Below are positions 55,483 to 63,036 of a stretch of DNA of 64,000 nt, one piece after another. Source of the DNA: Mycobacterium marseillense (GTDB lineage: Bacteria; Actinomycetota; Actinomycetes; Mycobacteriales; Mycobacteriaceae). The translations under genes and the position numbers were made by a program. Position 1 is the stretch's first letter. Each line of letters begins with the position of its first letter. Below the pieces are notes generated by a model. That model saw nothing but the letters and a program-made list of their open reading frames with translations. It searched no databases and was not told where the DNA came from. Location: assembly GCF_010731675.1 (NCBI RefSeq), contig NZ_AP022584.1, forward strand, positions 1,798,001 through 1,862,000. The letters run 5' to 3'.

Positions 55483-56673
55483 TTATCCGAGGGTCGCCGA
55501 GGGCGGTACCACCGTCAGTCGGGGCAAGAAGCGGAGATCGGCTTCCCCGACGTTGCCTATGCCACGCCCGGCCATCGTTGCCATCGGCGCGCCGAGCATG
55601 CTTGCGGGAGCGCCCGCCGTGGCTCCTGGGGCAGAGGCCAGGCTGGTGCTATGCAGCGCCGCCGCGGCAGGACCCATTGCCGGGGCCGCAGATGCCCAGG
55701 TCTGCGGAACCGACAGCGCCCCGACCGTGGCCGCCCGGCCCACCCCCGCCGACACCGCCGCTCCACCGAGCCCTGCTGAGCCGGACGCTCCCAGCGCGCC
55801 GGAAGCGAGCGCGCCCGCCAGCCCCGATCCCGAAGCGGCGGTGCTGGCGGCGCTGACGGCCGGCATCAGAGACTTCAACTGGTTGGCGTTGGAGAGCAGC
55901 GCACTCGATATCCACGCGAACGAGCTTGTCATCGACAACGCCGGATTCACCGAACTCAGCGACGAACTCAGCGACGACACAGATCCCGTCGACGAAGCGG
56001 ACGTGGACGACAGCGGGGAGGCGAGCTGCTGCAGGGCCGTGGGCACCGTGGAGGTCACCTGTGACAGGACCGCCTGGGTGTCGGTGCTGGCCGAGCTGCT
56101 GACAGCTTGGCCGACCGCGGTCCCCTGTCCGGCCAGGCCGGCCGGGTTGGTGGTGGGTTGCGGCGTGGTGAACGGGGTCAGGAGCGACGCACTGGCTGAG
56201 GCGGCCGCGTAGCCATACATCGCGGCGACGTCCTGGGCCCACATCCCCGCGTACTGCGCCTCGGTCGCCGCGATCGCCGGCGCATTCTGCCCGAGGACGT
56301 TGGTCGCGATCAGCGACAGCAGCAAGCTGCGGTTGGCCGCGATCACCGGCGGCGGCACCGTCATCGCAAACGCCGCCTCATAGGCGGCCGCGGCTGCCAT
56401 GGCCTGCGAAGCGGTCTGCTGGGCCGTGGCGGCAGTGGTGTCCATCCACGTCACGTAGGGGGCGCTCGCGGTGGTCATCGCCGCTGACGCCGGACCCAGC
56501 CACGGCCCGCTGGTCAGCCCTGAGACCACCGAGGAATACGAGGCGGCCGCCGAATACAGCTGCTCGGCGAGTCCCGTCCAGGCCGCCGCGGCGGCCAGCA
56601 TCGAGGTCGGGCCCGGACCGGCATAGATCCTTGCCGAGTTGATTTCGGGTGGCAAAGCTGCGAAATCCATCAT
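55483..56673 (-). CDS. PPE family protein, PPE-SVP subfamily
   Basis: The 396-residue PPE protein begins MMDFAALPPEINSARIYAG and has the WxG-type turn (SGPWLGPASAAM) within the ~180-residue helical PPE domain. A Ser/Ala-rich stretch (~205-260) precedes the late SVP motif GALSVPQTWA that defines the subfamily. Such proteins pair with PE partners, leave by ESX (type VII) secretion and sit in or on the outer membrane. It starts 15 bases after the restored PE stop, in the usual PE-PPE order, at the end of the lpqS-cysK2-MFS run. The ORF is intact even though PE is frameshifted. Confidence 0.93.
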   Translation of the reverse strand: MMDFAALPPEINSARIYAGPGPTSMLAAAAAWTGLAEQLYSAAASYSSVVSGLTSGPWLGPASAAMTTASAPYVTWMDTTAATAQQTASQAMAAAAAYEAAFAMTVPPPVIAANRSLLLSLIATNVLGQNAPAIAATEAQYAGMWAQDVAAMYGYAAASASASLLTPFTTPQPTTNPAGLAGQGTAVGQAVSSSASTDTQAVLSQVTSTVPTALQQLASPLSSTSASSTGSVSSLSSSLSSVNPALSMTSSFAWISSALLSNANQLKSLMPAVSAASTAASGSGLAGALASGALGASGSAGLGGAAVSAGVGRAATVGALSVPQTWASAAPAMGPAAAALHSTSLASAPGATAGAPASMLGAPMATMAGRGIGNVGEADLRFLPRLTVVPPSATLG

Positions 56674-56688
56674 TTCACCTCGGAGTGC

Positions 56689-56984
56689 TTAGCCGGTCGC
56701 GACCGCGTTGGCGGCTTCGGTACCCGCATACGAATCAGCGCTGGCGCCAAGGGTGTTCGCGAACATTCGTTGATCACCGCAGCTTGGGCGCTGACGGCCT
56801 GGTACATCTGCGCCTGCGCGGCAAACTGCAACGCCGTCAATGCCGACACCTCGTCGGCGGCGGGAACCACCCCGGTCGTCGGGGCGGCCGGGGCGGCGTT
56901 TTCGGCGCTCATCGCCGAGCCGATGCCCTGCAGGTTGTCTGTTGCCGCCGTCAGAGCCGCTGGCTGAGTAGTCACAAACATCAT
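56689..56984 (-). pseudogene. PE family gene with a one-base frameshift
   Basis: The gene begins MMFVTTQPAALTAATDNLQ and keeps the PE helices up to QAAVINE. There the frame reads GAA TGT TCG; adding one base (GA-ATG) restores the expected INEMFANTLGASADSYAGT and AANAVATG ending at TAA 56691-56689, which would give 98 residues, the standard PE length. As written the frame instead gives an unrelated basic tail of ~30 residues to 56670. The missing base lies at about 56764-56768. It is either a true mutation or a sequencing error. The start overlaps the MFS stop by 4 bases. Confidence 0.85.
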
Positions 56985-61051: not shown

Positions 61052-62500
61052 CTAGACTTGATCTGTCGGACATTCCGGTTCGTTTTCCCATATGAGTTGC
61101 GCCTCTTTCTTTCCTCGGTGTTGACTACGCCGTGATGCAGGCTTAAGGCCATTGTTCTGGTTCAGATGATCACGGTTTCGTGACCCTTTTTCGGAATAAT
61201 GTTCGTTTGAGCGCAAGTGTTGTGGAGCCGCTAACGAAGAATCATGCAGTGCAGAGTTTTTCGGCGTGACCGCGACGTACCGCTGCGCCGACGATCGCCT
61301 CTGTCCCAAATTGCAGATCAAGGTTCTGATTGCGACGACGGGGTTGTAGAGCCGGTAAAGTGTTGCCAGTAAACGGCTACCGGTGAAAGCATTTACAGTA
61401 TCCATTTTGAACGGGATCGCCGCGGCGGATCCGAGCGCAAGCAGCGCCGCGAAGACTGCAACTGCATCGACGGCCGCCCGTGACCCTAAGCCCCCACCGT
61501 CGGGCAGGAGGATCAGCGGCACATACGACACAGCCAGGATAACTAGACCGGCACTCAAGCTACCCCGACAACCCCACCCGTCGAAGAACCATCGCGCGAT
61601 GCGCAACTGGCCGGCAACGACCACCACACCTGAAATGGCGAACACGACGGTGACAAAACAGCTTTGGAACCACAGTGTCGGTGCCGCCACTTGCAGAGGC
61701 AGGGCAAGGTGGCCCTGAAAGGTCACTACATACGAACCTATCATCGCGGCGAAGAGCAGCAAAGACCGGTTGGCTAGGACGATCCGCCAATCCTGCACAA
61801 CCGATGTAGATCTCGGCGCCTGCTCGCTCTGCTGAAGTAGCAATCGCGCAATTCCTGCCGAATAGCTGCCGGCAGCCACCGGGCACACCACCGCATCGAT
61901 TCCACCGAGCTGGACGAGCAATCCAAAATCCAACGATTGATAATCGACAACGTTGTCAAAGTTGGTGTACTGAAACGGAATCCATGCACCGTGTTCGGTG
62001 GCCAACGACTGCACGACCCGATCTTTGCGGGCTTGCTCCCATCCACCAACCGGGCGCAGTGCGTCGACGAGGACAACGTCGGCGCCGTAGGCAGCAAGCA
62101 TCCGGCGAATGGTCGGTCCCATCATCCCGGTATCGATGACAACCGCTACCGGACCCACGCACACCTGGCCCGCTAGAACCAGTCCCAAACCTAGTCTGCC
62201 GCCGGTGAACTCCGCGGTCCGCGCTTCAGACAGCAACCCGCCGCGGGCGCGCGCCTTATCGACCATGTGCGTGGCAAGGACTTCCTTCATGCTGCCACCT
62301 GGGTTAAAGCACTCAAGCTTCGCCCAGAAACCGCGGTCCGGAATGCTCTGGGACGCCGAGATCTTCAGCACCAAAGCGTGTCCCACCAAGACACCAGGCG
62401 CCCATAGGTGGCAGGCCTGCGCGGCCAGTAGAAGCGCCCCGATGGCGGTAAGAGGTGGACCTTTTGCAAGATTATTGTCAGTGCGAACAACGTCAGTCAT
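61052..62500 (-). pseudogene. deletion chimera of cysK2 and its MFS neighbour
   Basis: One open frame of 482 codons joins the N-terminal half of a CysK2-like enzyme (residues 1-~223, with K72 in FNPGGSMKEV and the VAAGSYSAGIARLLL loop) directly to the second half of the MFS transporter (from ~227, APRSTSVVQDWRIVLANR). That part matches the intact MFS at 56981-58276 from its residue ~195. The missing piece equals the end of cysK2 plus six MFS helices. After ~397 similarity stops (ICNLGQRRSS), suggesting a further frameshift, then a foreign tail. Decay is the simplest reading; a working fusion is unlikely. Confidence 0.8.
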
Positions 62501-62595
62501 TTGATCGTCACTTCCATCAACGCGCGAGGCGCGACAATTGGTAAGAAGCGTTCACCGGCCGGCGACGCGAAGCGCAGCGGCCTGACGGTGACTGA

Positions 62596-63036
62596 TCAGC
62601 GACGAGACAAGCAGAGCCGAGTCAACAGATCTCGACCGGCGCAACGCACTGCAAGCACAGTGGGCGGACCCCGCCCCGGCGCCGCCGCGGGATAAGCCAA
62701 CCACCCCGCCCCCCCAACTGGGCTGACTGCGGCGCCGAAACTCGCCAACGCGGCCACGGACGGTGTCAAGGCGACGGCCATGAACTGGTCGTGGTGGTGT
62801 GTCGACGAATCTCTTCTTGCGTGTGCATGGTCTGGGGGTAGCTGATCCCTGACCACTTGCGACGATTCAAGCGAAGTTGCCGCTTCACCGGCAACGATTT
62901 CCAGATCCGTTGAGTTAGTTCTACTTTCGTGGTGGTGTGCGCCACCGATTACCATCCACAATATCAACCATACTGCGGCTGTTACCGCGACCAAACGGGA
63001 TCGCGGCATTGTCGGATCGGCAACGTCGATTCTCAT
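62596..63036 (-). CDS. lpqS: LpqS-family membrane/exported protein, upstream copy
   Basis: The 146-residue paralogue has a hydrophobic segment at ~15-33 (LVAVTAAVWLILWMVIGGA) followed by HHHES, a His-rich middle (PPDHAHARRDSSTHHHDQF) and the ending GRDLLTRLCLSRR. The family end GRGPP is kept. It starts at ATG 63036; the frame is open further upstream but without family-like sequence. The last 20 bases (62596-62615) and the gap behind it match the end of the other lpqS copy. It heads the whole minus-strand run to the PPE gene and diverges from the M-box. Confidence 0.82.
   Translation of the reverse strand: MRIDVADPTMPRSRLVAVTAAVWLILWMVIGGAHHHESRTNSTDLEIVAGEAATSLESSQVVRDQLPPDHAHARRDSSTHHHDQFMAVALTPSVAALASFGAAVSPVGGAGWLAYPAAAPGRGPPTVLAVRCAGRDLLTRLCLSRR

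What the first reader, a model, noticed from the sequence alone, without database searches (positions are those of the whole stretch)
55483..63036. Metal/sulfur run: LpqS, CysK2, MFS, CDF zinc pump and a PE/PPE pair on one strand
The lpqS-cysK2-MFS cassette (RicR/copper regulon in M. tuberculosis) is here joined to a zinc efflux pump and to a PE/PPE pair, with MFS-PE and cysK2-MFS overlapping by 4 bases. Since PE/PPE proteins can form outer-membrane routes for small solutes, the set could make, pump and pass a sulfur compound (such as S-sulfocysteine or a metal-binding derivative) across both membranes. I know of no description of this combination.
Basis: inference. Interest (0 to 1): 0.85.

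Follow-up and report, generated by a model that had tools for sequence, protein, structure and literature searches.

The report
Copper-linked leader peptide heading metal genes
A small membrane protein called LpqS, thought to be a copper lipoprotein, looks instead like a regulatory leader: it carries a sequence known to make ribosomes stall, it is often followed at its stop codon by a conserved RNA hairpin, and in mycobacteria it sits in front of a sulfur enzyme, PE/PPE proteins and other genes, which makes an old puzzle testable.

Summary
The gene run is real but needs correcting. Intact on the minus strand are PPE, MFS, cysK2, lpqS1 and a CDF pump. The PE frame matches only 1-69 of 91 of the Pfam model. 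The right end is a second, decayed cassette (lpqS2 plus a cysK2/MFS deletion pseudogene). M. nebraskense shares the arrangement; the one M. avium plasmid opened carries lpqS-cysK2-MFS-PPE. PE/PPE lies within 3 kb downstream, same strand, of 18 of 84 mycobacterial cysK2 genes (opposite strand 0; upstream 4 and 3). The CDF link is rare.

The important find is lpqS. 190 of 195 LpqS-family ORFs end with R-[G/A/S/D/P]-P-P 22-27 residues before the C-terminus, the residues published mutagenesis found arrest-competent. In 145 of 215 LpqS ORFs a covarying hairpin, unmatched in Rfam, starts 0-1 nt after the UGA stop; 153 of 154 model matches in fetched loci follow such a stop. The module heads cysK2-MFS, PE/PPE and FAD-oxidoreductase (DAO) genes.

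Best reading: LpqS is a metal-sensing arrest leader in the functional class of CruR and CutF, built differently. Arrest, copper dependence and direction of control are inferred. The sulfur-export idea is untested and unneeded.

The parts
59529..59969 (-). lpqS1: small exported/membrane protein, about 130-146 codons (start not settled), His-rich middle, RGPP, tail ending CLSRR then TGA
   Evidence: NF052429 64.8 bits; 92.9 bits in the genome-wide search; family alignment
59595..59606 (-). RGPP codons of lpqS1 (Arg is the 25th residue from the C-terminus)
   Evidence: sequence; family statistics
59470..59528 (-). hairpin starting directly after the lpqS1 stop codon
   Evidence: covariance model R1: 57.2 bits, E 3e-11; covariation
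58273..59418 (-). cysK2 (S-sulfocysteine synthase family, PLP enzyme)
   Evidence: PALP 199.6 bits
56981..58276 (-). MFS transporter, ATGA overlap with cysK2
   Evidence: MFS_1 109 bits
56670..56984 (-). PE frame; only positions 1-69 of 91 of the PE model, rest in another frame
55483..56673 (-). PPE, SVP subfamily, intact
59980..61011 (-). CDF cation efflux protein, ends about 10 nt before lpqS1
   Evidence: TIGR01297 244 bits
62596..63036 (-). lpqS2 of the decayed cassette (RGPP at 62662-62673)
   Evidence: NF052429 71.4 bits
62541..62595 (-). decayed hairpin directly after the lpqS2 stop codon
   Evidence: R1 28.6 bits, E 1.5e-4, several broken pairs
61052..62500 (-). pseudogene: cysK2 front half joined in frame to MFS rear part
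54619..54972 (+). zf-TFIIB (Zn-ribbon) protein, neighbour also in L012, L134, L135 and on the M. avium plasmid
53783..54520 (+). DUF1275 membrane protein, neighbour also in L012, L134, L135 and on the M. avium plasmid

Best explanation
The run is a mobile metal-linked cassette whose control element is lpqS. LpqS is best read as a cis-acting leader: a nascent exported membrane protein with a His-rich loop, which stalls its own ribosome at R-G/A-P-P about 22 codons before the stop. In most copies a hairpin of about 55 nt begins 0-1 nt after the UGA. A ribosome at the UGA (covering about 12 nt beyond it) cannot coexist with the outer stem; a ribosome parked at RGPP can. The 5' arm (UCAGCG) can also pair with CGCUGA, which contains the stop codon, with similar predicted energy. 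So metal binding that changes the time spent at RGPP would decide which RNA fold forms, and with it whether the next gene (cysK2-MFS, PE-PPE or an oxidoreductase) is expressed. Shown by computation: the motif, its permitted residues, its fixed place, the covarying hairpin at the stop, the near-invariant UGA, the different downstream genes. Inferred: arrest itself, copper as ligand, and the direction (my guess, little better than even: release at RGPP opens the downstream genes).
For: Motif: 190 of 195 distinct LpqS ORFs have RxPP (RGPP 152, RAPP 17, RSPP 16, RDPP 4, RPPP 1), Arg 22-27 residues from the end, 148 at exactly 25. PMC12992588 section 7: in ApdA and ApdP, Gly and Ala fully permissive, Ser, Asp and Pro partly, Arg irreplaceable. 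In 145 aligned ORFs (above 60 bits) R 99%, P 99%, P 100% and tail positions Gly, Leu, Arg, Cys, Arg, Arg at 89-98%, while most other positions vary; a lipobox-like motif in only 13 of 145. DNA conserved beyond the stop, last codon CGC 127 of 143; stop TGA 214 of 215. Hairpin covariation, cells changed on both sides: A1 45 against 20.5 shuffled; A2 107 against 42.9; A3 133 against 55.0; 0 of 500 shuffles each; slid structures far worse. Specificity: in 5.5 Mb (150 of 22743 first-look candidates scored) only 5 places with E below 0.05, each after an lpqS, next E 0.35; 153 of 154 matches in loci follow a TGA, 151 with RxPP. Several target types. Palindromes TA[CT]CC-N3-10-GG[GA]TA upstream, mostly TACCC-N5-GGGTA: 51 of 167 cysK2-linked, 7 of 15 PE-linked, 4 of 14 PPE-linked, 11 of 16 other; letter-shuffled means 1.25, 0.05, 0, 0.15. 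The two folds: median -28.7 (stop-codon pairing) and -30.3 kcal/mol (long hairpin), n=164.
Against: Arrest was not measured. RGPP lies about 22 codons before the stop, farther than in CruR, and I know of no role for such a conserved tail in this class. 70 of 215 LpqS ORFs have no R1 match at the stop, among them 13 of 14 directly PPE-linked ones; five fetched genomes (L206-L210) keep RGPP leaders before cysK2 without an R1 match. Covariation is strongest in the apical stem; two pairs of the model (columns 5/57 and 11/50 of A1) are unpaired in 17 and 14 of 28, and the count of pairs with a double change was reached by 12, 1 and 14 of 500 shuffles. The stop-codon pairing is the less stable fold in 103 of 164 and loses two pairs in oxidoreductase-linked copies. 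No RicR-type operator near this window's copies. DUF2946 (CruR family) does not match LpqS. Many sequences are related, so counts are not independent.
Confidence: 0.65

Rival explanations
1. LpqS is an ordinary exported copper-binding protein; RGPP and the tail are needed for its fold or placement, and the hairpin is a plain terminator or mRNA stabiliser between lpqS and the next gene.
For: NCBIfam names it a putative copper homeostasis (lipo)protein. PMC10956863 cites that an rv0847 mutant is copper-sensitive (passages). His residues are conserved.
Against: Only 13 of 145 have a lipobox-like motif. The x of RxPP is confined to the arrest-competent residues. The hairpin sits 0-1 nt after the UGA, has no following U-run in the copies printed (by eye), and the same leader stands before unrelated genes.
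Confidence: 0.2
2. One reading: the genes form one operon that makes S-sulfocysteine or a derivative, pumps it (MFS, CDF) and passes it through a PE/PPE channel.
For: cysK2-MFS-PPE recurs, also on a plasmid; 4-base overlaps.
Against: CDF is rare (3 of 84); PE is out of frame in its last third; lpqS also precedes oxidoreductase genes and PE/PPE without cysK2. No substrate evidence.
Confidence: 0.07
3. The sequence after the stop is a DNA-level element (protein-binding palindrome or integration site of the mobile cassette) and not an RNA switch.
For: The cassette occurs on plasmids and in several copies in the genome.
Against: Covariation keeps base pairing while the letters change; matches lie on the coding strand at the stop codon in 153 of 154.
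Confidence: 0.08

Closest known systems
CruR (DUF2946), Bordetella pertussis (PMC9426467, passages seen)
   Same: Nascent protein with C-terminal RAPP and metal ligands, first gene of a copper-regulated operon; copper acts through the arrest motif
   Different: No DUF2946 match; His-rich loop instead of CXXC; motif about 22 codons before the stop instead of 3 residues before the end; conserved hairpin at the stop; other targets (cysK2, PE/PPE)
CutF, Rhodobacter capsulatus (PMC9973294, passages seen)
   Same: Exported copper-sensing leader with a proline-rich C-terminus, followed by a stem-loop
   Different: CutF has CxxxC and its stem-loop shields the next gene's Shine-Dalgarno sequence; here the hairpin abuts the leader's own stop codon and the next start is further on (110 nt after the lpqS1 stop here; median estimate 76 nt before cysK2)
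RAPP/RGPP arrest peptides ApdA, ApdP and the seven of Streptomyces lividans (PMC12992588, abstract and sections 7, 13, 14 read)
   Same: Small secreted or membrane proteins with RAPP/RGPP near the C-terminus, upstream of metal and other genes
   Different: LpqS is not named there (0 occurrences of lpqS in the main text); a fixed tail and stop-codon hairpin are not described in the sections read
lpqS-cysK2-Rv0849, RicR regulon of M. tuberculosis (PMC7924339, PMC10470581, passages seen)
   Same: Same genes lpqS, cysK2 and a membrane permease, copper-linked
   Different: Here with PPE, CDF and a decayed second copy, and no operator found at this copy

Membership tests
RAPP-like arrest peptide | R-A/G-P-P (S, D, P tolerated) near the C-terminus of a small protein | tested here: met
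   190 of 195 ORFs; permitted residues from PMC12992588 section 7
RAPP-like arrest peptide | Localisation signal or transmembrane segment | tested here: inconclusive
   Two hydrophobic blocks in the alignment, by eye; no topology program run
RAPP-like arrest peptide | Arg-dependent ribosome arrest | not testable with these tools
   needs cell-free translation
RAPP-like arrest peptide | Encoded upstream of a same-strand gene that it controls | tested here: inconclusive
   Position: cysK2 168, PE 15, PPE 14 of 215 (sample gathered around such genes); control untested
CruR / DUF2946 | Match to PF11162 | tested here: not met
   Own-genome search up to E 10: one 15-bit match, not an LpqS gene
CruR / DUF2946 | CXXC about 45 residues before RAPP | tested here: not met
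   55 of 145 have no Cys in the stretch examined and no CXXC column is conserved; His positions instead
CutF | CxxxC motif and stem-loop over the next gene's Shine-Dalgarno sequence | tested here: not met
   No conserved CxxxC in the alignment; hairpin adjoins the leader's stop
LpqS (NF052429) | Score above the curated cut-off of 35 bits | tested here: met
   64.8 and 71.4 bits
RicR regulon | CsoR/RicR-type palindrome (form recalled) upstream | tested here: not met
   Window: no site with up to 2 mismatches beyond 57236; other copies have it
PE/PPE pair | Complete PE domain followed by PPE domain | tested here: not met
   PE 1-69 of 91; PPE 1-163 of 165
Zinc CDF pump | Metal specificity zinc | not testable with these tools
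   CDF superfamily met (TIGR01297), ZitB model below its cut-off

The most novel reading that the evidence does not exclude
LpqS proteins of Mycobacteriales are a family of metal-sensing arrest leaders coupled to a bistable hairpin that abuts their stop codon. This one module has been placed before unrelated genes, including PE/PPE proteins, and so puts PE/PPE and S-sulfocysteine synthesis under co-translational metal control.
Probability: 0.55. Interest if true: 0.88.

Novelty: new variant of a known kind. Interest (0 to 1): 0.78.

Why it matters
LpqS is labelled a copper lipoprotein and its action is not known to me. If it is an arrest leader, mutants lacking it would be misread: their copper sensitivity could come from misregulated cysK2, MFS or PPE genes. 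It would bring co-translational metal sensing to mycobacteria, add a hairpin fixed at the leader's own stop codon (not met in the passages I saw of the CruR and CutF papers), and give a handle on when some PE/PPE proteins are made. The motif, hairpin and residues to test are named, so the test is direct.

Tried and rejected
Rfam search over 59300-59700: three weak matches, all far below their gathering scores; the rest of the window was not searched. DUF2946 and local Pfam searches for LpqS: no meaningful match; relatives carry PF26327 as a precomputed label. A functional CysK2-MFS fusion protein: rejected. Coding in another frame after the stop: judged unlikely from the table, not tested separately. 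RNAalifold on plain MAFFT alignments failed for the cysK2 class (0.0 kcal/mol) and gave -0.71 for the rest (column-shuffled -0.03); a seed alignment and covariance model were needed. A second GC-rich hairpin before cysK2 was found by a loose pattern in 93 of 168, so I make no claim. Nine R1 matches, picked by eye because no LpqS stood beside them in the capped list, were opened: three have no ORF ending there (L333, L335, L337; 33-36 bits), six do. That Rv1706A of M. tuberculosis lies beside PPE22/PPE23 is recalled; PPE22, PPE23 and copper together gave no paper.

Paper searches behind 'not found in print'. One search found 1,085 papers with any two of five terms and showed 15, none with lpqS. 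One search (lpqS with ribosome) listed four papers, of which I saw only titles and abstract starts. The library is open-licence PMC only, so this is no proof of novelty.

Dropped rows: survey places with under 4.6 kb flank on a side (37 of 121 mycobacterial places); loci sharing the same cysK2 or LpqS letters counted once; LpqS ORFs under 60 bits left out of the alignment and codon tables and of the energy comparison (164 of 215 used). Searches over many genomes score only the best first-look candidates per genome (7 or 8 for proteins, 16 for LpqS, 23 for R1) and print capped lists. The non-mycobacterial set in the survey was assigned by record title.
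Full report
WHAT IS THERE. The window lies in a 5.5 Mb Mycobacterium genome. Read in the direction of transcription (minus strand, right to left) the stretch holds lpqS2, a cysK2/MFS pseudogene, a CDF pump, lpqS1, cysK2, MFS, a PE frame and PPE; the zf-TFIIB and DUF1275 genes lie beyond on the other strand. The CDF gene ends about 10 nt before lpqS1. The right-hand lpqS2-cysK2/MFS part is a second cassette with an internal deletion; against M. nebraskense (L012) it shows no codon-position bias (.765/.697/.736) and 10 of 12 indels out of frame, unlike the CDF, MFS and cysK2 genes beside it. 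Its dN/dS against the intact paralogs (0.22, 0.34) is not by itself a sign of decay. It is shared by three genomes (window, L012, L135), so the decay is old. The PE frame matches the PE model at 1-69 of 91 only.

THE ARRANGEMENT IS RECURRENT, WITHOUT THE CDF. Of 248 unnamed Mycobacterium genomes 103 have a cysK2 match at E of 1e-100 or better. I fetched 80 stretches, nearly all around listed cysK2 hits but not around every one, and joined them with 79 named loci. In 121 distinct mycobacterial cysK2 places, 84 had at least 4.6 kb on both sides: MFS directly downstream 72, lpqS directly upstream 71, PE/PPE within 3 kb downstream on the same strand 18, downstream opposite strand 0, upstream same strand 4, upstream opposite strand 3, CDF above 50% identity within 3 kb 3. 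The places are related by descent, so this is not a probability. Nearest relatives of the PPE tell the same story: of the 24 best non-self hits among 248 genomes (7 candidates scored per genome), 21 lie beside lpqS and/or cysK2, the exceptions being in G045, G082 and G059; of the next three that I opened, none (read off by eye). The window genome has three cysK2 copies and six LpqS genes above cut-off; its second cassette (L133) reads lpqS-cysK2-MFS-lpqS'-PE-PPE with a PPE 90% identical to the window's. Six plasmid records of M. avium and relatives carry cysK2 at 84.5% identity, the best of 69 records. The one opened (NZ_CP040248.1, typed mobilizable) has a four-helix copper-binding protein, DUF1275, zf-TFIIB, lpqS (48% to lpqS1, RGPP, R1 hairpin 58.3 bits), cysK2 (83%), MFS (84%, absent from the gene table) and PPE (80%), and no CDF match. 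PMC8525567 reports lpqS, cysK2 and PPE among genes of note or of mobile regions in the M. avium complex (passages).

LPQS LOOKS LIKE AN ARREST LEADER. A profile built from LpqS hits found 195 distinct ORFs in the loci then held. 190 have R-x-P-P near the end: G 152, A 17, S 16, D 4, P 1. The Arg is 22-27 residues from the C-terminus, 148 of 190 at 25. In 145 aligned ORFs this motif and the tail (consensus TGRDLLTRFC[IL]ARR) are the best conserved parts; of the rest mainly His residues and an LPxR stretch stand out. Mutagenesis of ApdA and ApdP in PMC12992588 (section 7 read) found G and A fully, and S, D, P partly, arrest-competent (in ApdP also V or E in part), with Arg irreplaceable; ApcA tolerated none. 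Sections 13 and 14 report that such motifs are rarer than controls, lie near the C-terminus of small secreted or membrane proteins, stand upstream of copper genes among others, and arrest in seven of seven tested S. lividans proteins. LpqS is not named in its main text, nor in that of PMC10987492.

A HAIRPIN AT THE STOP CODON. The stop is TGA in 214 of 215 LpqS ORFs; in 143 of them examined codon by codon the last codon is CGC in 127, and conservation continues past the stop. Three conserved Arg codons of the tail prefer different spellings (CGG 101, CGT 89, CGC 127 of 143), which argues for selection on the nucleotides. Folding showed a hairpin of about 55 nt, GGUCAGCG-YCA-GGCC..GGCC-GG-UGA-C-CGCUGACC, with GG and C bulges. 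A seed of 28 sequences shows compensatory change (45 cells against 20.5 shuffled). A covariance model found 92 matches in 100 loci and 62 in 99 loci, with 107 against 42.9 and 133 against 55.0 doubly changed cells, 0 of 500 shuffles each. Weaker measures: the number of pairs with a double change was reached by 12, 1 and 14 of 500 shuffles. The later alignments are fitted to the model and include seeds, and shared descent can inflate such counts. 153 of 154 matches start right after a TGA, 151 of an ORF with RxPP; the one without is a reverse-strand echo. 145 of 215 LpqS ORFs carry it at E of 0.01 or better: cysK2-linked 126 of 168, PE-linked 10 of 15, PPE-linked 1 of 14, other 7 of 17, contig end 1 of 1. 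In the own genome only five places have E below 0.05, each after an lpqS gene; the sixth lpqS (1251863) has none. In 248 genomes 64 have a match under strict filters, against 123 with an LpqS match. Nine matches, picked by eye for lacking a listed LpqS, were opened: six follow an LpqS-like ORF (one of them with RGPA instead of RxPP), three do not. It also occurs before cysK2 in Nocardia. In the window lpqS1 has a clean copy (57.2 bits) and lpqS2 a decayed one (28.6 bits), in keeping with the decay of that cassette. Five fetched genomes (L206-L210) keep RGPP leaders before cysK2 without an R1 match.

TARGETS AND PROMOTERS. The leader stands before cysK2 (168 of 215), PE (15), PPE (14) and others (17). 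Six loci (L281, L282, L284, L289, L291, L336) have an FAD-dependent oxidoreductase downstream; three of these were scanned and match Pfam DAO at 119-130 bits; R1 is found in L282, L284, L289 and L336, not in L281 and L291. The sample was gathered around cysK2, PPE and LpqS hits, so proportions are biased. Upstream of lpqS a palindrome TA[CT]CC-N3-10-GG[GA]TA, mostly TACCC-N5-GGGTA, the type I recalled for CsoR/RicR repressors, is frequent in all classes. The window's two copies lack it; two own-genome copies have it, or a one-mismatch form, about 225 nt upstream of the LpqS match (1308951, 1273830). Genome-wide the pattern with one mismatch allowed hits 18 and 16 times by strand, the reversed control 10 and 5, so single sites are weak evidence.

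MECHANISM. With a ribosome at RGPP the hairpin can form; with a ribosome at the UGA its first 12 nt are masked and the predicted energy goes from -30.3 to -22.1 kcal/mol (medians, n=164). The arm UCAGCG can pair instead with CGCUGA across the stop (-28.7; the more stable fold in 61 of 164). I therefore propose that metal changes dwell at RGPP and this selects the fold. Which fold lets the next gene be read is not known: in CruR copper relieves arrest and shuts the operon (PMC9426467, passages), in CutF copper prolongs stalling and opens it (PMC9973294, passages). cysK2 and Rv0849 are copper-linked in M. tuberculosis (PMC7924339, PMC10470581, PMC9048740, passages), so induction is the likelier outcome.

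VERDICT. The genes are real, the CDF link is local, the PE/PPE link is recurrent and also plasmid-borne, and the most interesting element is one the finding does not mention: lpqS with its stall motif and stop-codon hairpin.

Noticed in passing
L001:12016-16717 and 17383-19999 (just right of the window): PE-PPE followed by two Esx-like small proteins and a 591-codon Nramp-like transporter (named by eye), then further PE/PPE genes: another metal transporter beside a PE/PPE-Esx group.
   Followed up: no
L281, L282, L284, L289, L291, L336: LpqS-type leader ending ..CIAR[IV] or CISRV before an FAD-dependent oxidoreductase (DAO family in the three scanned); four of six with the hairpin.
   Followed up: partly
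L347 (NZ_CP040248.1, M. avium plasmid): 24.6 kb mobilizable plasmid with copper-binding protein, DUF1275, zf-TFIIB, lpqS, cysK2, MFS and PPE.
   Followed up: partly
window 52657-53448 and L134 after 8232: CDF-like partial transporter ORF; in L134 a sixth LpqS (RRGPP) lies about 500 nt before its relative, then a CDF gene, DUF1275 and zf-TFIIB.
   Followed up: no
L206-L210: RGPP leaders before cysK2 without an R1 hairpin; in L206, L207 and L208 a second small ORF with RAPP and a CVSRR tail lies upstream.
   Followed up: partly
L135 (genome G099): DUF1275-zf-TFIIB and CDF-pseudogene-lpqS2 without the intact cassette between them; about 4.4 kb there not examined.
   Followed up: no
L132 (own genome 1309770): cysK2 95% identical to the window's but the next MFS gene only 4 kb further on: a recent copy with something between.
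   Followed up: no
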